From Moesziomyces globuligerus (taxonomy: Eukaryota; Basidiomycota; Ustilaginomycetes; Ustilaginales; Ustilaginaceae), in contig JARVLF010000019.1 in assembly GCA_030849465.1 (NCBI GenBank), positions 620,001-684,000 of the forward strand: 64,000 bases of DNA, written 5' to 3'. The notes below the pieces were generated by a model. The model was not told the origin of the DNA and searched no databases. It was given only the letters and a program-made list of their open reading frames with translations. How positions within the stretch are numbered: the stretch's first letter is position 1; each line of letters starts with the position of its first letter. Both the position numbers and the translations under genes were made by a program. Positions 18,249-42,447 of the stretch are shown here, one piece after another.

Positions 18249-18435
18249 GAAAATTTGAAGAAGCGCTGGAGGGGTCAGCGCGAGAAGAGATGATGGTGAT
18301 GAGGAAGGGAGACGGAGTGAGTCGAGCGACTCGATTAATGCGCAGAGAGACTGAGCTCTGCGCTGGCGCACGCGTGTTGATCATGTGCAGCCGCACAGGC
18401 CATTGAAATGCGCGTCTGTGCCATTCGCGCTGCCA
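18249..18435 (-). repeat. Terminal split repeat A1 of element A
   Basis: This 187-bp sequence marks the 5' end of the element and matches A2 (12713-12899). The host flank begins GAATTCGCATG at 18436. Confidence 0.9.
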
Positions 18436-24935: not shown

Positions 24936-26336
24936 ATGAAGCTTTCATCGACTACTGGAGCCCTCGTCCTGGGAATGGCGGGTCTGGCACAGGCCGTCAG
25001 TCTCGGCGGAAAGGGTTACGTAGACTTGTCGGTGTACGGCAACACGCCGACCCATCTGGGTGCTGGGATCCTGTATGGTCTTCCGGACGATCCCGCCTTC
25101 AGCCCCAACAAAGCTCCCACGCTGCCGTCCAACCTTTTCACTGGTGCAGGTATCAACTTTGTACGCGCTGGGGGTGCCCAGACCCCGTACAACGGTTACA
25201 ATGGCGGCAATGTCACAGGCTACCGCTACCGCTTCCAGTCGACTCTGCAAAACTACCAGTATGCTAATGCCCGAGGCGCTCAGTTTGTGCTGCTTCCGCA
25301 CGACCTTTGGGGCGCGGACTCGGTAACGTCCTCGACCAACGTGTACCCTTGCGATGGTGGCGACTGCACGGCCTGGGGAACTTTCCTCGATATGCTGATC
25401 TCGGACCTCAAGTCGAACAACATGCTCAGTGGCCTTCACATTGACATTTGGAACGAGCCCGATGGCTCCAATTTCTGGCCTCGCAGCCAGGATCAGTTCC
25501 TGAAGGCGTATGCCTATGCACACAACAAGTATCGAGCTGCATTTGGAAGCAGCGTTCCCTTGCAAGGCCCCACGACTGCTGAGCCTGCGAACGCTCAGAG
25601 CACATGGTGGAAGAACTGGGCGTCGTACGTCAAGGCCAACAATGTCGTTCCTGACATCTACGCTTACCACCAGCTGTCAGGCCGTGGGTCTGCCAACTGC
25701 GGCAACGACCCTGTTGTGTCCAATGACCAGTTGAACAAGCTCAAACAGGCATACGGGCTGCCAGATCGTCCGGTGCAGATCAACGAGTTCGCAAACTCGG
25801 ACGAGCAGACGCCTGCGTACACCGCTTGGTTCTTCGGCCGATTCGAACGCACAGGCATTACAGGCCTGCGCGCCAACTGGGGAAGCAAGCAAGGTCTTCA
25901 TGACGATCTTGCACGTCTCCTGATTGTTTCGAACAATTACCAAACCTTCAAGACGGCGGGAGACTGGCACGTGAACAACTACTATACACAGAGGCAGAAA
26001 GGCCTCAAAACCTTGGCCGGGGCCACGGGGTCCGCCTGCTACGACCTGTACGTTACCCAAGACCGTGATGCTGGTCAGGTGCATATTTTGGCTGGCACTC
26101 GCGGTCAGGACGGGCCCTACCCCATCACCGTCTCGAACATCAACAGCCTGCCCGCATTCGCCGGAAAATCGCGCTTGCGCGCCTTGGTACAGGAGATCCC
26201 GTACAACAACGCTGGTGTCGTCGATGGACCGAAAGTGCTTTTCAACTCGTCAGTGGCCGTCTCCAACAACCAGCTCTTCTACAACCTCACTATGACCACC
26301 GACAGCGCCTACACGATCGACCTATATGCCAACTAG
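24936..26336 (+). CDS. Secreted clan-A glycoside hydrolase, GH39-like (paralogue 1)
   Basis: Predicted secreted hydrolase of 466 aa in one exon. A signal peptide (MKLSSTTGALVLGMAGLAQA) covers residues 1-20. The fold is a clan-A TIM barrel: LHIDIWNEPDGSNFW holds the acid/base Glu (about E174), and PVQINEFANSDEQ holds the nucleophile Glu (about E284). Other family-like blocks are GINFVRAGGAQ, FVLLPHDLWGAD and RTGITGLRANWG. A C-terminal beta domain follows (AGQVHILAGTRGQDGPYPITV). Several Asn-x-Ser/Thr sites suit the secretory pathway. I place it near GH39 from remembered fungal sequences; the substrate is unknown. It has a diverged paralogue at 35649 in the same island, next to GH31 and GH127 enzymes and a sugar transporter, which suggests plant cell-wall glycan release. 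Confidence 0.8.
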   Translation: MKLSSTTGALVLGMAGLAQAVSLGGKGYVDLSVYGNTPTHLGAGILYGLPDDPAFSPNKAPTLPSNLFTGAGINFVRAGGAQTPYNGYNGGNVTGYRYRFQSTLQNYQYANARGAQFVLLPHDLWGADSVTSSTNVYPCDGGDCTAWGTFLDMLISDLKSNNMLSGLHIDIWNEPDGSNFWPRSQDQFLKAYAYAHNKYRAAFGSSVPLQGPTTAEPANAQSTWWKNWASYVKANNVVPDIYAYHQLSGRGSANCGNDPVVSNDQLNKLKQAYGLPDRPVQINEFANSDEQTPAYTAWFFGRFERTGITGLRANWGSKQGLHDDLARLLIVSNNYQTFKTAGDWHVNNYYTQRQKGLKTLAGATGSACYDLYVTQDRDAGQVHILAGTRGQDGPYPITVSNINSLPAFAGKSRLRALVQEIPYNNAGVVDGPKVLFNSSVAVSNNQLFYNLTMTTDSAYTIDLYAN

Positions 26337-27842
26337 GCAGCCTCAGGCGTAAAAGGTCGCAACGCAAACTCGATCGTCGCCGTAGCGCAAGCTAGATCAT
26401 CGTCTGTCGGCCACGCTTGCACCGTACCTTGTTTACCATCCCCATTTCCTTCAGCTGTCACACCGGTTTGGCCCTTTCGTCTTCAGTCGCGCCCGTTGCC
26501 AACCTCCCAGCCTTGCACCCCGCCACGCGGTCGCGGGTCTGCTCCCGCCCACTTGAACTGTTGCGCACATTAGCCTTTTTTTTATCGAATCGAGTCAACA
26601 TTTTAGAGATTGACCTGTGTTTTTTATGCAGGAAGGTGCGTGAAATATAAAACATTATAAATAATGTTCCACGCAGCTCCAGCTCCCTGACCCCTTGTTG
26701 ACAGAGCGAGAGGGTCATCGGCTGCGTTCCAAGTTTTGAATCAACCTGATTCGCACAGTAGGGCTCGTGCGTCTGAACCAACTGTTCAAAGAAACGTGCC
26801 CAGCTTCGATGCTGCGAAAGCGGCTGTACTGCGTTCTACCCCGGAATCCGGCGTCCGCTGCACTGGCAGCTTTCAACTCCGACAGAGCACACAAGAAAGT
26901 ACAGTGGGAGATTGCCGGATCTCGGAGTTATTTGTTTTTGGACCCGGATACCTTGGTTGACTAGTTTCCATCTATCCACAATCACTTGTGAATAAATACA
27001 GTACTGTAATTGCAATCGGCCATCTAAGGCACTCGCCGAGATTGCCGGAAGAGCTGCGTCTACCGGGCTGACCTTGCACCGGGTCACGTTGTGGAGGACA
27101 TGGCCGTATTTGCGACATGTCAAATCTCGCAGCTTCTGCAGTCCGACCCACTTTGCAGCACAGCGCTCAGATGCATCGCACGCATCCCTTCGCCCTTTTC
27201 TGGTCAGGTTTGAACGCGCTCGGACTCGTACTCACGCTCGCTGTATAGATTGATCGATGGAGCTATCAGCACCGTCTCCACACGTCTGAGCAATGGAGCA
27301 CACAGGCTCAGCTGCACGTGCTCCTGCTTGTGCGGTGACAAATTGCTGGTGGGGCCCTGAACAGTGTTGAACGCTTGGCTCAAGTCAGGTTCCGTGAGCA
27401 AGCAAACGTCGCCGGTGCCCGGAGCTGCCTTGATCCCCGGATGTTCCGGGAATCTCTCTCAATTCTTTTCTCATTCCCGGCGAGCGTCGCTGCCGTGATT
27501 GTGCGATGCGACGGAGTTTGAACTTTGTAGTCAGACTCTGGGTGCGCTCTCGCCTTTTTGGCAAGACGTGCCAGCCTCGAGAAAGAACGTCCTTTCGTAG
27601 CCTTCTGGGATAGCGATGTGCGAACATGCGATGGAGATTTGTGCGGCGATCAAATTTACGGATGCTTGTTCCAGCGAGACGGTCCAGGCTGGCAGCCCCA
27701 CCGCTACCCGCCTGCGACGCTTCGTGAAGCGAGGCAATCCTTTAAATTACCGACTCAAAAGCTGTAGGTCGGCTCACAGGTTGCCCTCTAACCACATAAA
27801 ACTCAGCTGCTCGCTTAGCAGTTGAAAGTGACGATCACTACA
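26337..27842. other. Intergenic region, 5' flank of the GH31 gene
   Basis: No supported gene. It contains an AT-rich stretch near 26570-26670, the motif ACAGTACTGT at 26998-27007, and GTGGGGCCC near 27351, a candidate Mig1/CreA-type site about 490 bp before the GH31 ATG. Confidence 0.5.
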
Positions 27843-29876
27843 ATGATCGAATCCGAGGAACAAGCCCTTGTCTTCCGCTACGACAACGAGCTTCTTCGTA
27901 TCGATGCTTGGGGGCCCAATGCCGTCCGTGTCAGATCCACGCGCTTGCCCGACTTTCCTGAAGAGTCATGGGGCATCTTTTCGAGACCTCAAGTCAACTC
28001 GGTCGACTTCACGGAAGTCAAGACGCGGGAAGGGGGAATCGATGCGGGCGCCGTCGAGATGCGCAATGGCCAGATCAGAGCCTCGCTGACCGCGCGAGGC
28101 AAGCTTACTATTTACAATGTCACAAGCGGACAAGTACTGCTCGAAGAGTATAGTCGAAACCGCAACGATCCCTGTGACCCTAACTGTAGTGCTCTGCTCA
28201 TCGACGCGAGGGACTTCGTACCTATCCCTGGCGGCGACTATCAGCTTACGGCTCGGTTCCAGACGCAAGATCGAAGCGAGAAGATCTTCGGTATGGGCCA
28301 GTATCAACACGATCATCTCGACCTCATGGGCGTTGATCTGGAGCTCGCTCACCGAAATTCGCAGGCTAGTGTGCCTTTCTTTCAGTCCAGCCGCGGCTAC
28401 GGCTTCCTTTGGAACAATCCTGCAGTTGGAAGAGCGACGTTCGGCAAGAACATCATCTCCTTTGAGGCACGATGCACAAAGGTGCTTGACTACTGGATCG
28501 TCGCAGGCAAGACTCCTTCCGAGATCCAGCGAGCTTACTCCAACGTCGTCGGTAAGACACCCATGATGCCCGAGTGGGGACTCGGCTTCTGGCAGTGTAA
28601 GCTTCGCTACGAGACCCAGGAGCAACTGCTCTCAGTAGCCCGAAAGCACAAGTCGCTCGGTCTTCCGCTCGATGTGATCGTCTGCGACTTTTTCCACTGG
28701 CCCCGTCAGGGCGATTGGAGATTCGATCCAACCTATTGGCCGGATCCCAAAGCGATGGTCGACGAGCTTAGGTCCTTGGGCATCGAGCTTATGGTCTCCA
28801 TCTGGCCGACCGTTGACAAGCGCAGCGAGAACTATGAATCCTTCAAAGCACACGGCCATCTCATCCGCACCGAACGTGGCGCACGTACCACCTTCGATTT
28901 CCTCGGCGATTGCAGCACCGTAGACTTCACCAACCCGAAGGCTCGCGAGCACGTGTGGTCAATCGCTCGGAAGAACTACTACGATCTGGGCATCAAGACG
29001 TTTTGGCTCGACGAAGCCGAGCCGGAATATATGAAGTACGATTTCGATCACTTCCGCTACCACAAGGGCCCTTTGATGGCCGTGGGTAACGAGTATCCAC
29101 GGTCGTATGCTCGCTGCTTCTACGAAGGTCAGCAAGCCGAGGGGCAGACTGGAGTTGTCAACCTCATCCGTTGTGCATGGATCGGGGCACAGCGCTACGG
29201 CGCCCTCCTTTGGTCGGGAGACATTGCTTCGTCATGGTTGGTCATGCGAAGGCAGCTCGCCGCCGGCTTGAGCGTCTCGATCGCCGGCATTCCTTGGTGG
29301 AACAGCGACATCGGTGGCTTCCACGGCGGTGATCCGAACGATGCGAACTTCCGCGAACTCTTGGTTCGCTGGTTCCAGTGGGGCGCATTTTGCCCCGTCA
29401 TGCGCCTGCACGGCGACCGTGAGCCCCGTCAGCCCAAGCCCGGTGCTGCTCGAAATGATCCCGACTATTGTCAGTCCGGCGCAGACAACGAAGTATGGTC
29501 CTACGGTGAAGACAATTACCCCATCCTCAAGAAGTATATCCTGCTCCGAGAGGCACTTCGTGATTACACCAGGCAGATCATGAAGATCGCCTCTGAGCAT
29601 GGCGATCCTATCATGCGATTGCTGTGCTACGAGTTCCCGGCTGATGCCGAAGCCTGGCAGGTGGAAGACGAGTATCTGTACGGCCACAAGTACCTGGTGT
29701 GCCCCATCTTGTTTCCAGGAGCGAGGACGCGCAAGGTCTACCTGCCGGCCGGCGCCATATGGGCTCGCGTCTCATTCTCAGACTCGCTGAAGGCGAGCGG
29801 GAGCCTGCTCGAAGGTGGTCAGACGGTCGAGGTAGAGGCGCCACTGGATGACATGCCGGTGTTCCAGCGATTCTAG
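27843..29876 (+). CDS. GH31 alpha-xylosidase/alpha-glucosidase, intracellular
   Basis: Retaining glycoside hydrolase family 31 enzyme of 677 aa, without a signal peptide and so probably cytosolic. I start at the ATG 27843; the frame extends 21 bases further only through a TTG. The N-terminal beta domain has FGMGQYQHDHLDLMG and VPFFQSSRGYGFLWNNP. The catalytic barrel shows DVIVCDFFHWPRQGDWRFDP, the nucleophile Asp in KTFWLDEAEPE (about residue 390), and WSGDIASSW with the acid/base Asp (about residue 459). SDIGGFHGGDPNDANFRELLVRW and MRLHGDREP follow. The 'DFFHWP..GDWRFDP' layout resembles bacterial-type alpha-xylosidases (YicI-like) more than secreted fungal alpha-glucosidases, but sequence alone cannot fix specificity. 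It probably trims imported oligosaccharides together with the GH127 enzyme. Confidence 0.9.
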   Translation: MIESEEQALVFRYDNELLRIDAWGPNAVRVRSTRLPDFPEESWGIFSRPQVNSVDFTEVKTREGGIDAGAVEMRNGQIRASLTARGKLTIYNVTSGQVLLEEYSRNRNDPCDPNCSALLIDARDFVPIPGGDYQLTARFQTQDRSEKIFGMGQYQHDHLDLMGVDLELAHRNSQASVPFFQSSRGYGFLWNNPAVGRATFGKNIISFEARCTKVLDYWIVAGKTPSEIQRAYSNVVGKTPMMPEWGLGFWQCKLRYETQEQLLSVARKHKSLGLPLDVIVCDFFHWPRQGDWRFDPTYWPDPKAMVDELRSLGIELMVSIWPTVDKRSENYESFKAHGHLIRTERGARTTFDFLGDCSTVDFTNPKAREHVWSIARKNYYDLGIKTFWLDEAEPEYMKYDFDHFRYHKGPLMAVGNEYPRSYARCFYEGQQAEGQTGVVNLIRCAWIGAQRYGALLWSGDIASSWLVMRRQLAAGLSVSIAGIPWWNSDIGGFHGGDPNDANFRELLVRWFQWGAFCPVMRLHGDREPRQPKPGAARNDPDYCQSGADNEVWSYGEDNYPILKKYILLREALRDYTRQIMKIASEHGDPIMRLLCYEFPADAEAWQVEDEYLYGHKYLVCPILFPGARTRKVYLPAGAIWARVSFSDSLKASGSLLEGGQTVEVEAPLDDMPVFQRF

Positions 29877-32085
29877 CAGTAAGACAGACAACCTTCGATC
29901 CAGGCGGTGATGCCTGCTGCTTCCCTCACAAAATCCCTTTGAGAGCTAGCGTACCCGGATAAGCACAATACTTGTTGCGGGGCCCCAGATTGACGAGCTT
30001 GACCTGCCTGCCAGGCCGAGTTGATAGTTCCGCTTCTTAGCCTTGCACACCTCGATGGCTCGCTTTACAGACGCACGGAGATCTAGAGCTGGTTGCGACA
30101 TTCTTGATGCCTTTTTCGCGAATTTCTCTCCTCGGTTCAAAGGGAAGCGGATGGCATCATTCGGCTAGTCGCTGGCTCGATCGGCAAGGGAGGAGGTACA
30201 GTCGAAAACAGCTTGTTGGTGCCCTGCGTCGCTTAATTTACCTCGAGCACTTTTCCGGCGAAATCTGGAGGCTTCGTGTGTGGGCCTTGGAACCTCGCTC
30301 GGGAATCTCGGTTCACGCGTTCATGTCTCCTTACCAGTCTCGGCACATCCAAGACTTCGAGCTTTGGCACTCTCTGTAGTATTATTTTATAACCCGCTAT
30401 CTTGTATATATAATACAGGGCGTCAGCCTTACTGTTTTCGCCACCTGCTGAGGTGGAACTCGCGAATTCAAGGTGGAACGCCTTTGCAATCCTGAGGAGT
30501 CTGCCGATTCGACAAAATGTACTGATGGAGTATAAGAGCCCTTAATCTCGCAAATGTGGGTCTGAAGCGCGAATGCAATCAGATGAAGTGAGTGAATTGA
30601 TCGATCGACCAGCTGCATCGACACTGCGGTCGTGATCTCCTTTTGTGGTGGATTTTCTGGAAACTCCTCACAAAATCACAGGCCTTTCTCTGCCTTTTCA
30701 GACTGTATTTTTTCCTTCCTTCTTTTTCGCACGCGTTCATCGTCAAAATACAGGAAACCCACCAAACTGAGCACAAGCTTCAAGTCAGTCAACTGTATAG
30801 TAATAGCATCGGCCACAGGGCAGAGAAAATACGATAGCCTGAGGCACCTGCGTGGAAATACGGGAAAGTATGCATATGCGACCAAAACTCTGCAGGCTGC
30901 CCGCAGTAGGGAGATTTCGCCGCCGTCGTCGTCGACTCACCTCGCGTATGCAGCTCGGCTGCAAGGATCTCGCCGATGATGATGTTTCGGGAGGATCTCG
31001 AGACGGCGCCGTCGTCAATTGATCCCACGAACGGATCCGACTTAGTCTGAAAGATATTTTCTATCATTCCGTAGGGGAGGAGGACGATAGGGAGCGTGAA
31101 AGCTTGGATCCGGCCTCAAGGCTCGAGTCGCCGTCTCAGGAACCATGTCGAGACGTGCTCCTGCTAAGCTTCACGAGACATTTCTCGAAGAGGCCGTCTC
31201 GAGTATGCAGGTTGGACGGAATTTGAACAACATGCATAAACCTGCATACTCGAGCTCGAGATGGGCCTCTAGATGGCGCGGCGAAACCTCCCTAGTCGCG
31301 CGCCTCGACGTCGGTCTCAAACCCCACTGCGTTGATTGTTTTGCTTTTTATGACCCCCTTTTCAAAACTTATTCAATCACGCTTTACCTTATTGCAGCCT
31401 TTTTGCCCTGGCATCGTCTTCATGTACTGTACCGTACTGCACAACCCCGCGAGAAAGTGCTTTGACTGTGCGGATGAACAGATCCCATCCCCTTACTGGG
31501 ACTGGAACACCCCACGATGAGCCTTACAGAGATCCTCACATGCGTGTCTCCCGACGCAGCTTTAGAACAGCTCCTATCTCACTGGCAAAGTCGAGTCCAT
31601 TGCCGTCGACAAATGATAGACGATCGCTGGCTTCAAGGATTGTTGCTGCTATGGTGAAGGGCTCTCTCACGGCGCCGTGTACCAGTACGTCAGTTGTATT
31701 TTGGGTCCGGCACGTTCGCCGAACAGCCGCTCGACTTGCTCCAACTGTCACTTGAACCCGTCAGGTTGCTCCCTTGTTATGCATCTCTTCTCGCGCACGC
31801 GAGCTTAGTTATACGCCGGGATTCATGCATCTTCGCACCTGCGCACCGCGTCCCATCACACGCGTACAAGGCGACAGTGTCCACAAGGGCCCTGTAAGGA
31901 GCCATACTAACGACAGACACAACATCGATACCTCGTACAGTCTTCGGTCTTGTTGCCAAGGCGTTCGAGATCAAGTGGAACGAGTCGGGAAGCCAAAATG
32001 GTACAGTACGATCAAGGGTCAGGGCGTCAAGAAACAGGTGACTGAAAATAGCACTAAAGAACTTGGAATTGATTCGTTGATCGAT
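29877..32085. other. Intergenic region between GH31 and the permease
   Basis: No supported gene in 2.2 kb. It holds TTGCGGGGCCCC at 29976-29986, a 14-bp-arm inverted repeat at 31198-31254, and GTACTGTACCGTACTG at 31424-31439. A GTACAGTAC is at 32001-32009. Confidence 0.5.
31198..31254. repeat. Inverted repeat with perfect 14-bp arms
   Basis: CTCGAGTATGCAGG (31198-31211) is repeated as its exact reverse complement at 31241-31254 around a 29-bp loop. It lies in a long gene-free region and may be a transposon scar or hairpin. Confidence 0.75.
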
Positions 32086-33801
32086 TCAAGCGTCCAAGGT
32101 GGCGACGTCCAGGTTGTTTTCCAGTTCCTTTTCGTCCTTGCTGTCCTTATGATAGGTGGTTTGAGCACCACTCTCCGAAGTAGGGGATCGTCTAGCATGG
32201 TAGAGGTCGAGCTCCGTCGACGCGAACTTGCGCGCAGGGATGCCATGGTTGAAGAGTTCGTCCATCTCGGCCGTGGTGCGGAAGCGCGTTTCAGGCAAAT
32301 GGAAGAACAGGATGACGAGGATAAGACCGCAGGTGCCGAGGTACAGGAAGGCACCTCTGGCGCCCCAGTTCCAAGCATCTGGCGAGAGCATTCGCGGGGT
32401 GAGGGTGTTGGTCACGAGACCAGTGAGAACGTAGGTCAATCGAGCAAGAACAATGGACTTGGCAAGCAGGCGGCTCGAAGGGATCTCGGCGATGATCGTG
32501 TATGCGCCAGGGCCGATCGTGCAGTTGTAGGCAAGAGCAAAGGTGATGAGAAGCGAACCAATGGCCCAAGAGATCGACGTCGAGTTGAAGAAGCCAAGTG
32601 CGCCGATGAGGATCAGATGGAGGCAGCAAAGGCCAGCGCCAAGCAAGTAGAGCGTTCGACGACCCATACATCGAAGGATGAACCACGAGGAGACGACCCC
32701 GATCATGTAAGTCGTGTTCATGACGATGTTGAGGTTGAAAGCATTGTCTTGGCTGAGACCAGCACGACGGAAGAAGACGACCGAGTACGACATCAAGGGG
32801 TTGCCGCACCACCATTGAAGCGCATAGACGATGCAGACCAACAGGGTTCGTCGGATATTGGCCTTGCGGAAGCATTCCAGGTAGGAGGCACCACGAGTCT
32901 CTGCCTTTTCGAGTGCGTTTGTGTGACGCATGAGACAGACGTGATTCTCGATGTGTGTTTCGTCTTCGCCGCTTTGCGTGGTCTGCATCCTCCGAAGCGA
33001 AGCCTTGGCTTCCTCGAACCTTCCCTTGCGGGCATAGTGCCAAGGCGATTCAGGAGCGAAGTACGCAATCAGGAACAGTGGCACGGGCCAAACCCACTGC
33101 AGCGCAAATGGCATCCGCCATGCCCACTGACCGGCCATGTTGAGGGTCGCACGGACGACGATCGAGCTGAGGAAGATGCCAAGGCCCCAACAGAAGCACA
33201 CGTACGAGGTCATGTACGGGCGCAGCTGAGTAGGGCAAATCTCGGCCGCATAAGTCGTAGTGAGGGTTTGAAAGACGCCCCAAGGAATGCCCATGAGAAC
33301 TTCACCGGCGCTGAGCATCGGTAAAGACTGAGCGAAGACGGGGATAAAGATGGTGAGCGTCATGAAGACCATAGACGCCATGTAGACAGGTCGATAGCCC
33401 CAGCGGTCTGATGCCCAACCCTGTCCGAGCAAGCCAATGACTTCACCGACCAAAGCAGAGTTGGACAGACCGGTCTGCCAAGGAGCTGTAATGACCTTGG
33501 AATCCCCAACAACGGTCCCGAAGCGTTCGATAAAGGCGTTGGATCCATAGAAGGAGTTGATTACAACCACATCGTAGCCCTCCATGACTAACGCTGTGGA
33601 AAGCCCAAGACTCCAGAGAGCAGCTTTCCAATGCTTGCGGAAGGCGTTCACGACACCGAGGTCCTTCCTTTCATGGGTGGCTGCAGCTTCTGCACCGGCA
33701 ATGACCTTTTCGTAGTCACCGCCGAGCTCACTTTGAATAGCTTCGGCTTCATGCCCCTTGATATGAAGTACATCCTGCGATTCGCAGGAAGAGGTTGACA
33801 T
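32086..33801 (-). CDS. MFS transporter, maltose-permease/oligosaccharide type
   Basis: Plasma-membrane sugar:H+ symporter of 571 aa, single exon, started at the ATG 33801 (MSTSSCESQDVLHIKG); an in-frame extension to 33873 looks non-conserved. The sequence follows the alpha-glucoside permease (Mal31/Agt1) subfamily: LSTALVMEGYDVVVINSFYG at the first helix, GQGWASDRWGYRPVY, PTQLRPYMTSYV, FAPESPWHYARKGRFEEA, and the loop after helix 6 leading to ALQWWCGNPLMSY. The terminal LPETRFRTTAEMDELF replaces the usual PETKG motif. Its position between GH31 and the GH39-like/GH127 genes suggests it imports oligosaccharides released outside. The long plus-strand ORF over it (31774-33324) is a shadow. Confidence 0.88.
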   Translation of the reverse strand: MSTSSCESQDVLHIKGHEAEAIQSELGGDYEKVIAGAEAAATHERKDLGVVNAFRKHWKAALWSLGLSTALVMEGYDVVVINSFYGSNAFIERFGTVVGDSKVITAPWQTGLSNSALVGEVIGLLGQGWASDRWGYRPVYMASMVFMTLTIFIPVFAQSLPMLSAGEVLMGIPWGVFQTLTTTYAAEICPTQLRPYMTSYVCFCWGLGIFLSSIVVRATLNMAGQWAWRMPFALQWVWPVPLFLIAYFAPESPWHYARKGRFEEAKASLRRMQTTQSGEDETHIENHVCLMRHTNALEKAETRGASYLECFRKANIRRTLLVCIVYALQWWCGNPLMSYSVVFFRRAGLSQDNAFNLNIVMNTTYMIGVVSSWFILRCMGRRTLYLLGAGLCCLHLILIGALGFFNSTSISWAIGSLLITFALAYNCTIGPGAYTIIAEIPSSRLLAKSIVLARLTYVLTGLVTNTLTPRMLSPDAWNWGARGAFLYLGTCGLILVILFFHLPETRFRTTAEMDELFNHGIPARKFASTELDLYHARRSPTSESGAQTTYHKDSKDEKELENNLDVATLDA

Positions 33802-34654
33802 CTTGTATGGGCGTCGATGGGCGTTACTTCGGCTGTGCGGGAGCGGACAGTTTTGCAGGTGTTTCTGAGGCAAATAGTGGGAGGCGCACCGATCGTAAAT
33901 TGTGGGGTAATTTCGTAGCCACTTGCGAATTTCGCTTCGATTTTATGCGATTTTGGGGCCGAACATGCCGCTGTCAAAGATAGGCAAGTACGGATGCGCT
34001 GTTCCTGATTGCGGGGCCCCTTGGTTGTTGGCTGTTGCTTCTTTTGGCTATGCGCTCAAGATTGCCGGAGCAGATCACCTGAGCTTCTCACCATGTGGCC
34101 GAGAGACAGGGGGAAATGCACGCACACCTGACTCGGCAAACTGTCGGACACTCCCGAGTCGCCGGCAGATACGGAGTCTCCAGCGGATTTCCGACGGTCC
34201 GTTTTCCCCGTGCGCTTCCCTGACTGATTGGGTTTTTCTTGTAAGTAATAAAACAATAAATTAAAGGCTTTTCTCTAGTTGTCCGCCGGCCTCCAACCAA
34301 AGAGTACAACACAAGTAGGCCATAGTATCCAATGACCCTGCTTGCTCCTCAGCGTTTGCACAAAGGGTGATGGCCTGTGTTCGAGATTGAACCCTTCAGG
34401 GCTCGGATATCATATTTTCCGAGCCGAAACTTGACTCATTCGAAGAGAACCACAGGACTAGCGTAACACAACGGACGATGGTGACTCTCGGTGCGTGCAA
34501 AGTAAGGTGACGTCTGCGATGGGCAATGTGAAGGTCGACGACTTCTCCATGCGTTCAGTGCACAGCAGCACCTAGCACTACTGATGCCTGGCGTATGGCA
34601 CCAATGATTCGCAAGCAGACAACGGGATCTGAGTTAGATACAGTTCGGCCTGAG

Positions 34655-34790
34655 ATCTCGTTCTCGTCGGACATCTATCTCGTCCTCATCGGACATTCAT
34701 CTCGTGTCGTCGGACATCTCGTTCTCGTCGGGCATCTAGCCCGTTCTCGTCGGACATCACCACCTCGTCGGGCATCTTGTTCTCGTTGCG
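34655..34790. repeat. Degenerate minisatellite (about seven 17-22-bp units)
   Basis: Units of the form ATCTCGTTCTCGTCGGAC recur from 34655 to about 34790 with variable spacing and point changes (for example TCGTCGGGC variants). It is noncoding as far as I can see. Confidence 0.8.
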
Positions 34791-35572
34791 CGTCTCTCAC
34801 CTTAGCAGCAATGAATATTTTGATCCATGCGGGCCGCCTCTTCGATTCGCTCTTTTGATGCATCGAACGCCTAGCCAGGCAAGACGAGACGAGATGAAAT
34901 CCGCAAGCATCGAGAATTCAGGGCTTGCTTTGAGGAGATTGTTTGGCACAAAATCGCACTAATCTTGTGTCGGCAATCTTGGATCATCCCACCCTGTTTC
35001 GCTGAGGTTCTTCGGGAACACGCCTTGGGAACTTCCACGCTTCCGGACGTGTGATTTTCTTTTCTCTGCTTCGATCGCTTCTTTTTTTTCGACTATTAAT
35101 TTATTATTAATGCGTTGTGGCGTCTGTATTCAAAGCCACGCAGCAATTTGAAAGGTCGACGGGCATGCTTGAACCGCTGTGGGGTCAGCAGTTTTCCCCG
35201 CCACGCATCGGTAATCTTATCTCCTCACATCACAAGCGGGGCTTGAGCAGCAGATCTCCGGCGAAGGACCACCGACCCTTCGACATTTGCGGGGCCCCAC
35301 GACCTCGCGAAGAACAGTGTCCTCACAGTACAGTAAAAGAATCGAACGCACGTCAGGGGTAGTCAAAATTGCTGCGATCATGAATCAGTTGGGGTGTCTT
35401 ATGGTGCAGAGATGATCATTGCCACAGACGCTAATGTTGCACACTGAACGTCGCTGTCGTGCAGGGAGCGTCTTCGTACTAAGGAAATCGGTACGCTTCT
35501 GTTGCACTACACTTCGATGTACACTATCATGAACCGCAGACGTAGGTTTGTCGTGCTCAAGAGAACTTCAAG

Positions 35573-35580
35573 TATATAAG
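35573..35580 (+). promoter_or_regulatory. TATA box of the second secreted hydrolase
   Basis: TATATAAG lies 69-76 bp upstream of the ATG at 35649, a normal distance for a strongly regulated fungal gene. Confidence 0.65.
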
Positions 35581-35648
35581 CCTGTGATACGCCCGCTCCA
35601 TTCATGCAGTCAATCTATCCTTACCCTTTATCCGCTCAACTACCGAAA

Positions 35649-37031
35649 ATGAAGACCAACCCGAAGACCCTCCTTGTCACCGTTGCTACCGCTTTCACAG
35701 CGGTGACCGCTTCACCAGTCGCTCTGAAAAGAGCATCGGACACGACCGTCGTCCACCTAAACCAGTGCACCGGCAGCCCTCAGCACTTCGCTCAGGGAGT
35801 GCTTTACGGCGTCAACGGCACTAGCCCTCCCCAGTCGTACATTACCGATCTTGGCGTCAACTACCTCTCTGAGGGAGGCGCGCAGATCGATGCTCAACCA
35901 GCTGGCTATGCCGCCAACATGGCTTCATACCAGCGCCGATTCAATCAGCTGCTCGGAGGCTACCAGCGCATGCGGGCCGTCGGCGGAGTCACAATCGCCA
36001 AAATGGCCGACTTGTATGGCGCCGACGAGACCACGGGAAGCTCCTTCGTGTGGCCGGGCGACAATGGAGACTGGACCAAGTGGGACGCCTTTGTGCAGCA
36101 ATTTATCTCTGACATCAAAGCTCACAGTATGACGGCGGCCTATGTCCTACAGCTCGAGCCTTGGAATGAGCCCGATGTCAACTTCGGAGGTCGGCCTCAA
36201 TCGCAATTCAACGAGCTTTGGCGCAGAACCACCGTCGCTCTCCGCTCTGCTTTTGGTCCAAACACGAGCACTTATCTACCCATCGTCGGCCCGAGCACAG
36301 CAGGCAACCCAGGGTATAATAATGGTTGGTGGAACAGCTGGCTTTCGTCGATTCAGTCCAACGGGGGGACCTCGGTCCAGCCTGACGTATACAACTGGCA
36401 CATGGAAGGCGGCCTCCCCAATGATCCAGTTCCTCCAGCTCAAGCCCTGCCTGCTTACGTCAAGAAGTATGGACTCACTACCGGACTCGGCGTTCAGAAC
36501 AACGAGTTCGGACTACGGGAACAACAGGTTCCTGGATGGGCAGCTTGGTTTCACGCCCGTTACGAGCGTCTGAAGTTCAACGCCCTGCGCGGCAACTGGG
36601 CTCGCGGTGCGGCCTTGCTTGACAGTCTCGCAGATCTGCTAATCAAGAACTCGGATGGCTCCTACTCGCAGACGGGCGAGTACCAGACATACAAATTCTA
36701 CAAGCTGATGACAGGCGCGCCTTGCAACACGGACTCAGGGTCAAGCATCGATTCATATGCCGTCGGTGCAACCAACAACGTCACTGCGTTGATCGGAAGC
36801 GAAAATTTCTCCGGCACCTGGAACGTAAACTTCCAGAACATCAATTCGTATTTCGGAAGCGCTACTCAAGTTAAAGCCGATCTGATCTTCTTCCCGTATA
36901 GCAACGGCGGGGTCGTTAACGGGTGGACAACGAACTACACGAGAACGCTTGCTGTCAGCAACAATGCCGTTACAGCCTCGTTTAGCGTTGCGAACGGCAA
37001 GGACGCTTACGCAGTTCGGCTGCACACTTAA
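35649..37031 (+). CDS. Secreted clan-A glycoside hydrolase, GH39-like (paralogue 2)
   Basis: Predicted secreted hydrolase of 460 aa, from the ATG 35649 that opens a signal peptide (MKTNPKTLLVTVATAFTAVTA); an in-frame ATG at 35604 would mask it. Catalytic residues lie as in paralogue 1: LEPWNEPDVNFGG (acid/base about E174) and GVQNNEFGLREQQ (nucleophile about E286), with FNALRGNWARGAALLD following. The lysine-arginine pair soon after the signal (SPVALKRASD) could be a Kex2 site. Several N-glycosylation sequons are present. The two paralogues share layout and length but are clearly diverged (for example FVLLPHDLWGAD against TIAKMADLYGAD), so this is not a recent duplication. They may attack different linkages of the same plant polymer. 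The GH39-like placement is inferred from motifs. Confidence 0.8.
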   Translation: MKTNPKTLLVTVATAFTAVTASPVALKRASDTTVVHLNQCTGSPQHFAQGVLYGVNGTSPPQSYITDLGVNYLSEGGAQIDAQPAGYAANMASYQRRFNQLLGGYQRMRAVGGVTIAKMADLYGADETTGSSFVWPGDNGDWTKWDAFVQQFISDIKAHSMTAAYVLQLEPWNEPDVNFGGRPQSQFNELWRRTTVALRSAFGPNTSTYLPIVGPSTAGNPGYNNGWWNSWLSSIQSNGGTSVQPDVYNWHMEGGLPNDPVPPAQALPAYVKKYGLTTGLGVQNNEFGLREQQVPGWAAWFHARYERLKFNALRGNWARGAALLDSLADLLIKNSDGSYSQTGEYQTYKFYKLMTGAPCNTDSGSSIDSYAVGATNNVTALIGSENFSGTWNVNFQNINSYFGSATQVKADLIFFPYSNGGVVNGWTTNYTRTLAVSNNAVTASFSVANGKDAYAVRLHT

Positions 37032-38458
37032 CCCTCCGACACGAGGCAGGTCCGGTGAATCGTACAGCACCTCATCAACACCACTCGATGTCAAGATACA
37101 TCTAGAATGAAGCTTGTTGGAATGCATTGCTGTCAAGTCGCCTTCGAGCCCTGCATCGCTACTGGGAAGTGGCCAGAGAAAAGTCGGCTTTGATGTCCGA
37201 GTTCGACCTTGCTGCCATGCTGTTTGTTGGACCGCTGCACCGCTGGGAAGATTGAGCAGCTAATTTGGAGACTTTGGCCCTAGCAATGCTACGATCATGA
37301 GTGCAGTTATGAAACCCATCTCGACAGCGACAAGAATTCCACAATGGCCGTAGGGTAGACTCGCCGTTCCCAAAGGGATTCGGAAAGCCACAAAGATGCG
37401 GACTTGGTAAGAGACTTGATCCATGCAAAGGCAGCTACTCTGATAATCGGGTGATGCAATTTCGCTCGTCCATGTTGCGAAGGTGTCTTGGCGCGTAGAG
37501 ACCTCAATGCTTCACAGACCACTGCCACCGAGCAGCATGACTTTCCTGGGGCATGCTCTAGGAAATCAGGACGCCCCAGTCAGCGTGGCGTGCTAATCAC
37601 CATTGTCAATCGACGACCGAGCCGGAGACAATGAGAACGAACGGTCCCAGATACCTGATCCGTCTGCCGACACTGTTCAGGGCCGCGAAGGCTCCTCTCA
37701 AATACATGCCAGATTGGACCTCATCGTGACAGGCCGGATCTGGAGTGAGGCTAGCCTGCTAGCAATGTTGTAGTTCGAGAAAATATCCGCCAAGGCGAGA
37801 CCGGCGCAGGTAGCCAATGTGTCTGCGTCGCCACTCCAACTTGCTTGCGTCAAGATGATCGCCCGAGTTTTGCTCGACCGTGGGAGCAATTCGGGCTTAG
37901 AACAGGCCGAATTCGAAGGAAGTACCAACATCATCTTCTAAAGCTTCGGTCGTCGGCATATGGCGGTCCCACGCGACGAGCCACTGGAGGCTCAACGGGG
38001 ATACAGTGCTCAGCAGATGCAGCTGCAGAGCAGGTATCGCATTCGCCGTCTTATTGGCAGGGAGCTCACGGATCGCTGCAGTGGACGGCATTCTTGTTAG
38101 AAGGCGGGGTATTTGCCGAAGCGGAAGAGCCGAGATCGCCGGATTCGTCTCGAGATTGCCGCAACACCGTCTCGAAAGATTCCCTGCAGTTGACACCTGC
38201 AGGAATTCCGGCGGCAATCTTGATCCCGCAGGAACACCTACAATACATCATTCTCCTATTAATACTATTTCACCTTCCTATTTCCAACGGGCCAGATTGG
38301 TACTATTATACTGTACTGTACCGAACAGTACAATCAGATTTCATAGTACAGTACCGCCTGTACAAGAATGCCGAGACCGACGAGGAGAGTGACTGACAAC
38401 CTGTTTACCCGTCTGGGCGTCACGCGCTGCGCAGGAAGATGAGCACAGTGAGAGAGAG
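37032..38458. other. Intergenic region, 5' flank of the GH127 gene
   Basis: No supported gene. It holds a GCGGGGTA motif near 38104 (about 355 bp before the ATG). A dense cluster of GTAC-containing palindromes lies at 38311-38354 (CTGTACTGTACCGAACAGTAC and GTACAGTAC). Confidence 0.5.
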
Positions 38459-40582
38459 ATGGCCGTGCACGACATCCGCGGCTTCAAATCTCAGAACGTC
38501 AGTGCACCCGTTGTTCACACTTCTTATAATCTTACCATCCACCCTTCGGATTCGGGTTCCATCAGCGGTCCCATTTCCTGCAGCACAGCAATCATGGCGG
38601 GCGACTACCCGCAGGAAAAGTACGTCCATGCAGCGCTCGAAGCTGGCTCTTTCTGGGAACGGTGGCAGTCCGTGGCCCGGAAGGTGACCTTGCCTGTCCA
38701 GCTGGATTTGCTTCGCAAGACCGGCAGGTACGAAGCCTTCAATCTCAAGCGTATCTCTTACTATGATCGGGAACCCGCTGTCTGGCCCGTCCCAGACCAC
38801 CTTTTCTGGGAATCGGACGTCGCAAAGTGGATCGAAGGCGCTTGCTACCATCTTCATTCTCGTCCCGACCCAGAGATTCAGTCGCATGTGGACCATCTGG
38901 TCGACTTGATCGAAAAGGCACAACAGCCTGACGGATACCTCAACATTCACTTTGTGGTCAACAAGCCTGACGAGCGATGGACGAACCTACGTGACCTTCA
39001 CGAGCTGTACAATTTCGGCCATCTCATCGAAGGCGCGCTCGCTCATCAAGCGCAGAGCGGCTCGGATCGATTGATCAAGGTCATGCTTCGCTTTGTCGAC
39101 TACTGCTGCACAGTGTTCGGAAATGATTCCGATAAGCTTGCTGGCTATCCGGGCCATCCAGAGGTCGAATTGGCCTTGCTCAGGCTTTATCATCGCACTC
39201 GGTACGCCAAGTCCCTCGAGCTGGCAGCTTACTTTCTGACCGAGCGCGGCAAGAACGGAGGCCAATTCTACAAAGATGAGCAGGCCAAGCGTGGCGAGCA
39301 CAAACACACCGTTCCAGGCATGATGCCAAAGCCTTACAGCTTCTGGTACATGCAGGCGCACAAACCCATTGCGGAGCAGGATACCATCGAGGGTCACTCT
39401 GTTCGAGCAATGTACCTGCTCACTGCAGTGCAGGATCTAGTCGTCACTCCTGACAGCACTCGATTCGTATCGACACAGCAGATCGAGCAGCTTTCTGCAG
39501 CGATCATGCGGCTGTGGAGGAGCATGGTGCGAACCAAGATGTACGTCACGGGCGGTATCGGCAGCATCAAGCAGTGGGAGGGGTTTGGCATTCCGTACTC
39601 GCTTCCCCTCAGTACGGACGAGGGCGGATGCTACACGGAGACATGTGCTGGGATTGGTGTACTCATGCTGGCAGATCGACTGCTGCACGAGAAACTAGAC
39701 GGTGATGTCGGGGATGTGGCCGAGAGGGTGCTTTACAATTCGAGCATCACGACTGGTATGTCGGTCGACGGCAGAGCATTCACCTACGTTAATCAGCTCG
39801 CGAGCTCGCCCGAAGAGCCTTGCGAGCGCTTCGATTGGTTCGAGTGTGCCTGCTGCCCGCCCAATGTGATGCGCACCTTCGGCTGCTTGCAAGGCTACTT
39901 CTTTGGCAGCTTATCCAGTCGAACCTCGGATCTTGCGATTCACCAAATCTTCGCAGGCTGCATCGACTATCTTGGCAACAAGGTTCAAATGCGCACCAAC
40001 TATCCGCTGGACGGTCAAGTCAACATCCATGTAGAGGCAATCGCCCCAGCGGCCACCATTTGGCTACGTGTTCCAGGCTGGGCCAAGTCGACCTACACCT
40101 TCTCTGGTGAGGCGCAGTTAGTGGACGGCTACATCGCTATCGAGAAGGCCGGCGAGTATAGGCTAAGCTTGGAGCTTAAGCCCCGCCTACTCTACTCTCA
40201 TCCAGACAGCGGGCCCAGCCGCGTCAGCCTTGCGTACGGCCCGCTCATCTACTGCATAGAGGATGTAGACAACGCATGGATCGACGACCTTCCCGAAAAC
40301 GAGCATCACTTCAAGCGCCTCTGCTTCGATTTATCGTCCCATATCAGCGTGCTTCAAATAGATGACGCTGGTATCATCAAATTGCGAGCAGCAGCTGCAG
40401 GCTACACGCTCAGATGCGATGATGCTCAAGGCTTTGCTTCTGCTTTCGAGGAAGACAAGCTGCCCGACTTATACGAAGAGGCAGGGCAAGGTCACGATCT
40501 CGTCTTTATCCCGTACTTCTACCGCTGCAATCGAAACGGTACAAAGGGGCGGATGCGCACGTCTCTGCGTGTCAAGCAGTGA
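38459..40582 (+). CDS. GH127 beta-L-arabinofuranosidase-like enzyme
   Basis: Retaining glycoside hydrolase family 127 (formerly DUF1680) protein of 707 aa, no signal peptide, probably cytosolic. Family blocks appear in order: HLFWESDVAKWIEGACYHL, QQPDGYLNIHF, DLHELYNFGHLIEGALAH, EGHSVRAMYLLTAV, VTGGIGSIKQWEGFG, ETCAGIGVLMLADRLL, and FECACCPPNVMRTFG. The Cys of the CCPPN motif (about residue 463) is the nucleophile position in the characterised bifidobacterial enzyme, and its Cys/Glu zinc ligands are present as motif residues. A C-terminal beta-sandwich follows (IWLRVPGWA). Known family members cleave beta-L-arabinofuranose from hydroxyproline-linked or related plant arabinosides. It closes the carbohydrate island and probably acts on imported oligosaccharides. 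Confidence 0.9.
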   Translation: MAVHDIRGFKSQNVSAPVVHTSYNLTIHPSDSGSISGPISCSTAIMAGDYPQEKYVHAALEAGSFWERWQSVARKVTLPVQLDLLRKTGRYEAFNLKRISYYDREPAVWPVPDHLFWESDVAKWIEGACYHLHSRPDPEIQSHVDHLVDLIEKAQQPDGYLNIHFVVNKPDERWTNLRDLHELYNFGHLIEGALAHQAQSGSDRLIKVMLRFVDYCCTVFGNDSDKLAGYPGHPEVELALLRLYHRTRYAKSLELAAYFLTERGKNGGQFYKDEQAKRGEHKHTVPGMMPKPYSFWYMQAHKPIAEQDTIEGHSVRAMYLLTAVQDLVVTPDSTRFVSTQQIEQLSAAIMRLWRSMVRTKMYVTGGIGSIKQWEGFGIPYSLPLSTDEGGCYTETCAGIGVLMLADRLLHEKLDGDVGDVAERVLYNSSITTGMSVDGRAFTYVNQLASSPEEPCERFDWFECACCPPNVMRTFGCLQGYFFGSLSSRTSDLAIHQIFAGCIDYLGNKVQMRTNYPLDGQVNIHVEAIAPAATIWLRVPGWAKSTYTFSGEAQLVDGYIAIEKAGEYRLSLELKPRLLYSHPDSGPSRVSLAYGPLIYCIEDVDNAWIDDLPENEHHFKRLCFDLSSHISVLQIDDAGIIKLRAAAAGYTLRCDDAQGFASAFEEDKLPDLYEEAGQGHDLVFIPYFYRCNRNGTKGRMRTSLRVKQ

Positions 40583-41133: not shown

Positions 41134-42237
41134 TCATCTTGTGCTCGTCCGATTTTCCCTCTTGCTTGTCCGCCTGGTCCCCTGCTGATCGGTAGTCGAG
41201 ACCTCTGTGATGGCTTGTGCTGTTCGTGCTTGAGAGAACGTATTGACTGGCCTCTTTTGAAGCACCGAGGTCCGCATGAAGCACCCAATCGCCCAGCGCC
41301 CAGATCCGGACACAGCATCACCTCCGCTGCTGTTTGCGCTGGCCACCGGCAATGTGTAGTGCGTATACTTGCTGGAAGCAAATACGACGGTATCAAGCGG
41401 ACGGAGCTTGATCTTGACGCCAAAGTCAGGCAATGCAAGCCATGCCTCTCCGCCAAAGTTGAACAGGAGCGAAGGACTATCGTCTTCGTTGTCTTTGTGT
41501 GGCTGGCCTGTGCTGTTTCCGAACAAGTACAGCGTCGTCCAGAACGAATGCAGAAGCTTCGCATCACGACCGAAGAGCCTGGTCAGGTATGGGCGGATTT
41601 TGCGGCGGGCTCGAAGCTTTTGACAGAATGACGCATGTATCCGGCTTCGTTTCTGCAAAGCGGCGTGCGTGTATCGTCGTCCCCAGTCTAGCAGCCGGAT
41701 GGCAAGGCTACGATACGCTTTGGTCATTGCTGTGAAGCCAAGCGAGCCGCAACCAATACTATGCCAGACACCAAATGCAGGAATGCTGGATCGTTGGCCT
41801 GTCCCGTGCTTTGCTGACTTCTGCCACAGGTTGTCAAAGAGCAGCTTGCCCTCGGCCTCCAAGGAGGCCAGCTTTGGTCTTCGAGCGTTTGCAGCAAACA
41901 CTTGCAGCACAGGCTCATCCTGCGAGGTGTCCTGAAACACGAGCCCATCTTTTGTGTCCAAAGGATCGAGGGTATGGCAAGGCTTGTCCCTCCGTTCCAG
42001 ATGGTGAATCCACCTGTCTTGATCAGTGCGATGTTGCGCTGCGCTATTGCATGGTGCCTCGCCCGCCACTTGCTGCTCTGCTGCTGACTGAGCTGCTCTG
42101 CGCGCGCGCTGTTGCCTTGTGAGGTGTCTTCGATGCGCAAGCAGGAGCTCTCGGGGGAGCTGGAATATCGAGGGCAACTCCTCGTCTAGGCCGGCTGGTG
42201 CAAGTGCCTCCTTCCTCCCTGCCCTACTGATCCTCAT
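41134..42237 (-). CDS. 2OG-Fe(II) dioxygenase-like protein
   Basis: A 367-aa protein from the first host-derived ATG (42237, MRISRAGRK). The recognisable part is C-terminal: GQPHKDNEDDSPSLLFNFGG supplies an HxD iron-binding pair, DFGVKIKLRPLDTVVFASSKYTHYTLP supplies the distal His, and RWAIGCFMR the 2-oxoglutarate-binding Arg. This order fits the double-stranded beta-helix dioxygenases, possibly the TET/JBP-like group common in basidiomycetes; the substrate is unknown. The rest is basic and not recognised. Retroelement B is inserted 24 bp upstream of this ATG, so the native promoter and perhaps an N-terminal exon are now about 5.9 kb away. In the reading frame the ORF runs on into the element's A1 repeat to 42348, which is probably not native. 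Confidence 0.6.
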   Translation of the reverse strand: MRISRAGRKEALAPAGLDEELPSIFQLPRELLLAHRRHLTRQQRARRAAQSAAEQQVAGEAPCNSAAQHRTDQDRWIHHLERRDKPCHTLDPLDTKDGLVFQDTSQDEPVLQVFAANARRPKLASLEAEGKLLFDNLWQKSAKHGTGQRSSIPAFGVWHSIGCGSLGFTAMTKAYRSLAIRLLDWGRRYTHAALQKRSRIHASFCQKLRARRKIRPYLTRLFGRDAKLLHSFWTTLYLFGNSTGQPHKDNEDDSPSLLFNFGGEAWLALPDFGVKIKLRPLDTVVFASSKYTHYTLPVASANSSGGDAVSGSGRWAIGCFMRTSVLQKRPVNTFSQARTAQAITEVSTTDQQGTRRTSKRENRTSTR

Positions 42238-42263
42238 CTTGTCGCGGTAATACTGCCGCTTGA

Positions 42264-42447
42264 TGGAGTGGCGCCCGGCACGGGCGCGTTCTTCAATGGC
42301 CTGAGCGCAGTTCGAGTGATTGGCACGTGACCACGAGCTGCGCAGCAATGCGCGAAGCCTTGTCTCTGCGCGCGCTTGTCTCCAACACTTCTCTCCACCA
42401 TCATCTCTCTTTCGCGCTCGTCAACTCGCAGCGCGCTTCAAGCAACA
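42264..42447 (+). repeat. Terminal split repeat A1 of element B
   Basis: This 184-bp repeat (TGGAGTGGCGCCCGGCACGG ... CTTCAAGCAACA) matches 47747-47930. A TGA shared with host or element precedes it at 42261. Confidence 0.9.

What the first reader, a model, noticed from the sequence alone, without database searches (positions are those of the whole stretch)
24936..40582. Fungal gene cluster resembling a polysaccharide-utilisation locus
Two secreted GH39-like enzymes, an intracellular-type GH31, an oligosaccharide-type permease and an intracellular-type GH127 lie together without other recognised genes. The split between secreted and unsecreted enzymes plus a transporter mirrors bacterial utilisation loci. 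GH127 points to beta-L-arabinofuranosides (extensin or arabinogalactan type) and GH31 to alpha-xylosyl or alpha-glucosyl residues. Such clusters are rarely described in fungi.
Basis: partly seen in the sequence, partly recalled or inferred. Interest (0 to 1): 0.8.

Follow-up and report, generated by a model that had tools for sequence, protein, structure and literature searches.

The report
Smut-yeast rare-arabinoside utilisation gene cluster
Five neighbouring genes near a chromosome end of a smut-type yeast look like a kit for clipping unusual two-sugar side chains off plant cell walls, importing them and splitting them inside the cell, much as some bacteria do.

Summary
Five intron-free genes (24936-40582) encode two signal-peptide-bearing GH39-like enzymes, an unsecreted-type GH31, an MFS sugar porter and an unsecreted-type GH127. 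Searches of the 18.5-Mb genome find GH39-like genes (2), GH127 (1) and this GH31 type (1) only here. GH31 is MeXyl31-type (alpha-xylosidase). GH127 keeps its Zn/Cys site. The GH39s are nearest to solved chains 8uwt and rumen-fungal arabinofuranobiosidase N2152. In bacteria this GH39 branch sits in sugar-import loci beside one exo-glycosidase: an MGH1-like GH in 49 of 80 loci, or MeXyl31-type GH31 in 3 of 80; those 3 genomes lack the MGH1-like gene. In Pseudozyma flocculosa GH39a and GH31 have consecutive locus tags, GH127 is elsewhere. I read it as a subtelomeric fungal counterpart of bacterial 'GH39 disaccharidase + importer + intracellular exo-glycosidase' modules, probably for arabinoxylan side chains: GH39a with GH31, perhaps GH39b with GH127. 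Activities, transport and co-expression are untested; no convincing shared promoter motif was found.

The parts
24936..26336 (+). GH39a, 466 aa, secreted-type, GH39-like (N2152 branch)
   Evidence: Pfam GH39 20.6 bits, below the cut-off of 26; 5u22 E 4.6e-15; profile A2 E 2.6e-45 to 5u22 and 2e-49 to 8uwt; WNEPD 172 and INEF 282 motifs, hydrophobic N-terminus
27843..29876 (+). GH31, 677 aa, unsecreted-type, MeXyl31-like alpha-xylosidase
   Evidence: Pfam 263.5 bits; 5zn6 MeXyl31 798.8 bits over residues 8-676, next solved chain 305.9
32086..33801 (-). MFS sugar porter, 571 aa
   Evidence: Sugar_tr 261 bits; TIGR00879 304.3 bits, cut-off 237.8; substrate unknown
35604..37031 (+). GH39b, 475 aa (start probably 35649), secreted-type, diverged GH39-like enzyme
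   Evidence: 31% identical to GH39a; 5u22 E 6.8e-15; keeps both catalytic Glu but only 51 of 66 conserved positions
38594..40582 (+). GH127, 662 aa, unsecreted-type beta-L-arabinofuranosidase family
   Evidence: PF07944 281.7 bits; 4qjy E 8e-100, 3wkw E 2.8e-81, Zn-site Glu/Cys conserved; start from relatives

Best explanation
A subtelomeric sugar-utilisation cluster of a Moesziomyces-like smut yeast that works like bacterial 'GH39 disaccharidase + importer + intracellular exo-glycosidase' modules. Proposed course: (1) secreted GH39a and GH39b clip whole two-sugar side chains, X-(1->n)-L-arabinose, off arabinoxylan or a related arabinosyl glycan; (2) the sugar porter brings the disaccharides in; (3) inside the cell GH31 splits those capped by alpha-D-xylose and GH127 those capped by beta-L-arabinofuranose, giving xylose and arabinose to pentose metabolism. 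Shown here: gene content, N-termini with and without a signal-peptide-like stretch, conserved catalytic residues, clustering, subtelomeric place, linkage of this GH39 branch with exo-glycosidases and importers in bacteria, and (from hit tables) linkage with GH31 in two other smuts. Inferred: substrates, transport, co-regulation, and the pairing GH39a-GH31 and GH39b-GH127.
For: Families found only here in the genome. MeXyl31-type GH31, GH127 with its Zn site, GH39 branch of N2152, which releases Araf-beta1,2-Araf, a sugar pair that GH127 HypBA1 splits (PMC10850190, passages). Bacterial GH39 relatives: MGH1-like GH in 49 of 80 loci although there are only 78 matches in the 78 genomes, so about 0.2 loci expected by chance (my arithmetic); MeXyl31-type GH31 in 3 of 80, 0.12 expected; the three genomes with GH31 there are among only 8 of 78 without any MGH1-like match, as if GH31 took its place. 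GH54 or GH62 arabinofuranosidase genes in 21 of 80. P. flocculosa PFL1_03995/03996 = GH39a/GH31; U. trichophora GH39a, GH31, GH127 on one 682,140-base contig. Published bifidobacterial GH39 clusters follow the same logic (PMC10688797, passages and discussion).
Against: No convincing shared promoter motif and no regulator among the five genes. GH127 apart in P. flocculosa and in 0 of 80 bacterial GH39 loci. GH39b has lost 15 of 66 conserved positions and may be inactive. In the two Chloroflexi loci GH39 itself seems to lack a signal peptide (L086), so secretion is not general. No expression data. The porter belongs to a family with 27 other matching stretches in the genome. Bacterial loci are mostly Actinomycetota and not independent; no chance control was made for LacI, SBP and permease counts.
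Confidence: 0.6

Rival explanations
1. A xyloglucan-type cluster: GH31 mainly splits isoprimeverose or alpha-xylosyl ends of imported xyloglucan fragments; GH39s and GH127 remove arabinosyl decorations of arabinoxyloglucan.
For: MeXyl31-type GH31; beta-linked Araf ends occur in arabinoxyloglucan of tomato cells (PMC10850190, passage).
Against: No endo-xyloglucanase, beta-galactosidase or beta-glucosidase in the cluster; in bacteria the neighbours are GH54/GH62 arabinofuranosidases in 21 of 80 loci, enzymes of arabinoxylan (family knowledge).
Confidence: 0.15
2. A cluster for hydroxyproline-rich glycoproteins (extensin, arabinogalactan protein): GH39s release arabinobiose or related ends, GH127 splits them; GH31 serves another end group.
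For: GH127 HypBA1 acts on Araf-beta1,2-Ara freed from Hyp-linked arabinans, and bifidobacterial GH39s act on AGP (PMC10850190; PMC10688797).
Against: GH127 is not linked with GH39a in P. flocculosa nor near GH39 in 80 bacterial loci; no GH43_24-, GH30- or GH121-type gene in the cluster; alpha-xylose is not a known part of these glycans (recalled).
Confidence: 0.13
3. No joint function: sugar genes that accumulate by chance in a gene-poor, low-GC subtelomeric region between retroelements.
For: The contig ends in (TTAGGG)n 79 kb to the right; GC 0.545 against 0.626 (sd 0.015) in 14 other stretches, and as low in 10-kb stretches outside the window; retroelements on both sides; no convincing shared motif; other sugar-transporter and Zn2Cys6 genes lie 17-20 kb to the left.
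Against: The GH39-GH31 pair recurs in P. flocculosa and in two bacterial lineages; three of the families share one contig in U. trichophora.
Confidence: 0.12

Closest known systems
Bifidobacterium GH39 (GAfase/AAfase) gene clusters for arabinogalactan side chains (PMC10688797; passages and discussion section seen)
   Same: Extracellular GH39 frees an X-L-Ara disaccharide; a transporter and an intracellular exo-glycosidase are encoded next to it
   Different: ABC transporter, LacI regulator and GH36 there; MFS porter, no regulator, GH31 and GH127 here; eukaryote
Actinobacterial and Chloroflexi GH39 loci found here (49 loci with MGH1-like GH, 3 with MeXyl31-type GH31)
   Same: Same GH39 branch; GH31 of the same type in 3; sugar importer nearby
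   Different: Bacterial ABC importer; GH39 often fused to ricin-type lectin; no GH127
Bifidobacterium longum HypBA2 (GH121) / HypBA1 (GH127) system (PMC10850190, passages)
   Same: A disaccharide-releasing enzyme followed by GH127 that splits Araf-beta1,2-Ara
   Different: GH121 instead of GH39; no GH31
NF2152/N2152, GH39 alpha-L-(beta-1,2)-arabinofuranobiosidase of a rumen fungus (cited in PMC10850190 and PMC10688797; original paper not held)
   Same: Closest characterised GH39 by profile (E 2.6e-45); catalytic Glu pair
   Different: Distant (about 59 bits with a single sequence); several residues conserved in the smut/actinobacterial branch differ; genomic context of NF2152 not seen
Subtelomeric CAZyme clusters of Trichoderma reesei (PMC4812632, passages)
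   Same: Clustered fungal CAZyme genes near chromosome ends
   Different: Described as loose clusters, five of them within 50 kb of ends, not as one secreted-import-intracellular pathway; GH39 and GH127 do not occur in its main text

Membership tests
GH127 beta-L-arabinofuranosidase | PF07944 catalytic domain and Cys3-Glu zinc site with acid/base Glu | tested here: met
   281.7 bits, cut-off 24.9; E349, C351, C420, C421 and E329 of the 662-aa form align with the HypBA1 residues (HypBA1 numbering recalled)
GH127 beta-L-arabinofuranosidase | Activity on beta-L-arabinofuranosides | not testable with these tools
   Nearest solved chains are beta-L-arabinofuranosidases; 5mqo is weaker; the NCBIfam aceric acid hydrolase model matches far below its cut-off (211 of 950 bits)
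GH31 alpha-xylosidase (MeXyl31 type) | Full-length similarity to MeXyl31 with both catalytic Asp regions | tested here: met
   798.8 bits over 8-676; WLDEAEPE 388 and WSGDI 457 aligned; no NCBIfam cut-off reached
GH39 | Pfam PF01229 gathering score | tested here: not met
   GH39a 20.6 of 26 bits, GH39b none; kept as 'GH39-like'. Many listed bacterial relatives carry PF01229
GH39 arabinofuranobiosidase (NF2152 branch) | Catalytic Glu pair and profile similarity to N2152 above the GH39 beta-xylosidases | tested here: met
   E 2.6e-45 against 7.6e-12 at best for beta-xylosidases; WNEPD and NEF motifs
GH39 arabinofuranobiosidase (NF2152 branch) | -2 subsite residues that set the released disaccharide | tested here: inconclusive
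   The region did not align with N2152 and structure prediction was off; GH39b differs at 15 of 66 conserved positions
Bacteroidetes polysaccharide utilisation locus | SusC/SusD pair | tested here: not met
   No such gene: Pfam hits of the five genes and gap scan; a eukaryote in any case
Bacterial GH39-importer-exo-GH module | GH39, sugar importer and unsecreted exo-GH together | tested here: met
Bacterial GH39-importer-exo-GH module | ABC importer and LacI regulator | tested here: not met
   MFS porter instead, no regulator among the five genes: same logic, not a member

The most novel reading that the evidence does not exclude
A eukaryotic two-branch disaccharide-harvest system with new GH39 specificities: GH39a is an alpha-D-xylosyl-alpha-L-arabinofuranosidase that frees alpha-D-Xyl-(1->3)-L-Ara from grass arabinoxylan for GH31, while the strongly diverged GH39b, seen so far in this genome alone, frees a beta-L-Araf-capped disaccharide for GH127; both enter by one porter.
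Probability: 0.25. Interest if true: 0.75.

Novelty: new variant of a known kind. Interest (0 to 1): 0.55.

Why it matters
If right, a smut yeast has put together the same 'clip the disaccharide outside, split it inside' strategy known from gut bacteria. The exo-glycosidase next to each GH39 would then predict the disaccharide which that GH39 releases, a rule that can be tested directly with purified enzymes on corn or rye arabinoxylan. It would also give enzymes for side chains that make cereal arabinoxylan resistant to digestion.

Tried and rejected
Structure prediction of the GH39s was switched off, so no fold search was made. Shared promoter motifs (patterns recalled): GGCTAA, GGCTRR, CreA-like and CGG/CCG patterns were not above shuffles; the AraR-like CGGDTAAW occurs once upstream of GH39b and once of GH127 (2, shuffled mean 1.0, as many in 48 of 200 shuffles; 0.11 per 5 kb in GC-rich background), and one 9-mer is shared by 4 of 5 upstream stretches (random sets mean 0.5, at most 4): not convincing. 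Genes missed between the five. Foreign origin from low GC: not supported, since 10-kb stretches outside the window (contig 610-620 and 684-694 kb) are as low. GH31 as a recent bacterial gene: not supported; the seven smut GH31s form one clade with P. flocculosa's in the neighbouring branch (quick tree). GH39b as a recent tandem copy of GH39a: rejected at 31% identity, further than GH39a or GH39b is from actinobacterial relatives. GH127 near GH39 in bacteria: 0 of 80 loci. In the first neighbour count single-linkage grouping put L086 into the MGH1 group; those counts were dropped for the direct search. Tree rows: one search used 72 of 122 (both queries, 19 rows taken as fungal, every second of the other 101); one search used the query and 39 of 120 listed hits.

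Literature limits: the NF2152 paper is not held; I saw it only as cited in PMC10850190 and PMC10688797. The alpha-xylosidase name of MeXyl31 rests on the PDB entry; the one paper naming it was seen only in a search listing. Searches bearing on novelty. None of the listed titles or abstract beginnings showed a fungal GH39-GH31-GH127-porter cluster; lists were capped and subscription journals are mostly missing. PMC9655821, PMC10176746, PMC5897528 and PMC7870139 were seen in passages and gave nothing on this cluster.

The plasmid collection gave three Streptomyces records with a GH39a relative; not used.
Full report
WHERE IT IS. The window is bases 620001-684000 of contig C19 (739,418 bases) of an 18.54-Mb assembly in 24 contigs. 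The GH31 protein is 91% identical to a Moesziomyces aphidis protein (P0241), so the organism is a smut yeast of that kind; the species was not determined. The contig ends in (TTAGGG)n repeats, so the cluster (contig 644,936-660,582) lies about 79 kb from a telomere. GC is 0.545 in the cluster against a mean of 0.626 (sd 0.015) in 14 stretches from other places; two 10-kb stretches outside the window (0.544 and 0.538) are as low, so this is a property of the region.

THE GENES. Single open frames: GH39a 24936-26336; GH31 27843-29876; sugar porter 32086-33801 on the minus strand; GH39b 35604-37031; GH127 38594-40582. Pfam: GH31 263.5 bits (cut-off 23.5), GH127 281.7 (24.9), Sugar_tr 261 (22.3), GH39a 20.6 (26, not reached), GH39b nothing. 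Both GH39s have a hydrophobic N-terminus of signal-peptide type; GH31 and GH127 do not (a crude hydrophobicity scan, no signal-peptide program). In the six gaps no ORF of 45 codons or more has a codon-usage score like the cluster genes'.

BOUNDARIES. Two LTR retroelements, each with 100%-identical LTRs of 187-188 bases, lie in opposite orientation at 12713-18435 and 42260-47930; their inner parts are about 72.5% identical. Between them lie the five genes, an unknown 945-aa ORF (19232-22069, minus) and unassigned ORFs. To the left lie a Zn2Cys6 transcription factor, another sugar transporter and an AnmK-type kinase.

IN THE GENOME. PF07944 has one match. GH39a finds itself and GH39b only. GH31 finds itself and four weak stretches of at most 45.1 bits on C2, C6 and C10. 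The porter has 27 other matching stretches, best 46% on C3, so it belongs to a large family. These searches are six-frame without introns and score the best candidates only.

WHAT THE ENZYMES ARE. GH31 aligns over its length with MeXyl31, a solved alpha-xylosidase, at 798.8 bits, the next solved chain at 305.9. GH127 aligns with GH127 chains 4qjy and 3wkw; the Zn-site Glu and Cys residues and the acid/base Glu are conserved (HypBA1 numbering recalled). A profile of 17 GH39-like proteins finds 8uwt (E 2e-49) and N2152 (E 2.6e-45) well ahead of GH39 beta-xylosidases (best E 7.6e-12). NF2152 is described as an alpha-L-(beta-1,2)-arabinofuranobiosidase that releases Araf-beta1,2-Araf, and GH127 HypBA1 as degrading Araf-beta1,2-Ara (PMC10850190, passages). 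GH39b keeps the two catalytic glutamates, but 15 of 66 positions conserved in at least 15 of the 16 other sequences are changed, among them R77, H122, W125, W181, H322 and W344 (GH39a numbering); each of the other 16 rows, tested likewise, keeps 57-61 of 61-69. This speaks for a changed substrate, or for loss of function.

RELATIVES AMONG FUNGI. GH127, GH39a and GH31 of Ustilago trichophora are all listed with a contig of 682,140 bases (P0003, P0122, P0245). In Pseudozyma flocculosa GH39a and GH31 carry tags PFL1_03995 and PFL1_03996 while GH127 is PFL1_06046 (P0124, P0249, P0007). These are inferences from hit tables; I could not view those contigs, and GH39b and the porter could not be traced there. 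Among the 120 GH127 hits listed (of 4961) none is named Ustilago maydis, Sporisorium reilianum or U. hordei, so the set may be patchy in smuts; many entries have no name. No GH39b orthologue was seen among the 120 GH39 hits listed (of 424): best match to GH39b 38.9% by BLASTP, 41% over 372 columns in the tree alignment. In the GH39 tree the smut GH39a clade is sister (support 90) to a clade of eight rows, five named Cercospora, Ramularia, Septoria or Zymoseptoria, one Hortaea, two unnamed, with Meira and Filobasidium outside (quick tree).

BACTERIAL CONTEXT. The 80 best of 147 confirmed loci with this GH39 branch, nearly all Actinomycetota, were scanned (its candidate list was itself capped). 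Direct search: MGH1-like GH in 49 of 80 (27 within 700 bases of GH39), LacI 54, solute-binding protein 47, permease 46, MGH1+SBP+LacI together 40, GH54 17, GH62 6, either of these 21, MeXyl31-type GH31 3; GH127 0. Control: the 78 genomes of these loci hold 78 matches to the MGH1-like protein (43 in 40 genomes, 35 in 38, two of them partial), so about 0.2 loci are expected by chance (78 x 20.5 kb / about 9.5 Mb, my arithmetic). They hold 49 MeXyl31-type GH31 copies, so 0.12 co-located loci are expected; three in two lineages were seen (Poisson P for two or more 0.006). The three genomes with GH31 beside GH39 are among the 8 of 78 without any MGH1-like match, as if GH31 filled the same slot; two of the three are incomplete, closely similar bins. 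No control was made for LacI, SBP and permease, which are large families. In Chloroflexi L086 the order is LacI (other strand), SBP, two permeases, GH31, GH39, with three bases between GH31 and GH39; L072 gives the same hits. There GH39 begins without a signal-peptide-like stretch. In Glycomyces L073 GH31 lies 5.2 kb and LacI 3.8 kb from the GH39-ricin frame.

READING. Bifidobacterial GH39s release alpha-D-Gal-(1->3)-L-Ara or beta-L-Arap-(1->3)-L-Ara; the authors propose import by the neighbouring ABC transporter and splitting by the neighbouring intracellular GH36 enzyme, and note a GH39 homologue next to GH127 in B. catenulatum (PMC10688797). So the exo-enzyme beside a GH39 hints at the capping sugar of its product. 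Here there are two GH39s and two exo-enzymes. GH39a goes with GH31 in P. flocculosa and this branch does in three bacterial loci, pointing to an alpha-xylose cap; alpha-D-xylose in corn xylan and a GH31 that releases xylose from it are on record (PMC4491172, passages; the 1->3 linkage to arabinose is recalled). By elimination GH39b may serve GH127. This pairing is my inference.

WHAT SPEAKS AGAINST. No convincing shared promoter motif, no regulator among the five genes, no expression data, GH127 unlinked in P. flocculosa and in 0 of 80 bacterial GH39 loci, GH39b perhaps unique or decayed, porter substrate unknown.

NOVELTY. Bacterial modules of this logic are known; fungal CAZyme clusters, some subtelomeric, are known (PMC4812632, passages). 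In the listings of my searches I saw no fungal cluster of this content. I call it a new variant of a known kind.

Noticed in passing
12713-18435 and 42260-47930: Two LTR retroelements in opposite orientation with 100%-identical LTRs (187 and 188 bases) bracket the cluster; inner parts about 72.5% identical to each other.
   Followed up: partly
5013-10697: Zn2Cys6 transcription factor (5013-6773), sugar transporter (6845-8131, minus) and AnmK-type kinase (9360-10697) left of the retroelement: perhaps a second small sugar-use cluster or the source of a regulator.
   Followed up: no
19232-22069 (-): 945-aa ORF without a Pfam match between the left retroelement and GH39a.
   Followed up: no
41134-42237 (-): Long open frame beside the right retroelement with no Pfam match and poor codon score; gene or chance unclear.
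   Followed up: no
34652-34795: Short imperfect tandem repeat (TCGTCGGACATCTCGTTC-like) between the porter and GH39b.
   Followed up: no
P0121-P0132, P0193, P0204: In the fungal GH39a tree a clade of mostly Cercospora/Ramularia/Septoria/Zymoseptoria rows is sister to the smut clade with other basidiomycetes outside, which suggests transfer between phyla of plant-dwelling fungi (quick tree).
   Followed up: partly
P0008, P0022, P0108: Fungal-type GH127 proteins under the names of plants (Cichorium endivia, Adiantum nelumboides, Carpinus fangiana): probably fungal contamination of plant assemblies.
   Followed up: no
L018:3787-11710 and other bacterial loci: A frequent actinobacterial set LacI - SBP - permease - MGH1-like GH - GH39 (MGH1-like GH in 49 of 80 loci); no function for it was looked up.
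   Followed up: partly
55463-57589 (-) and 61012-63813 (-): Copper amine oxidase and a second Zn2Cys6 transcription factor right of the retroelement.
   Followed up: no
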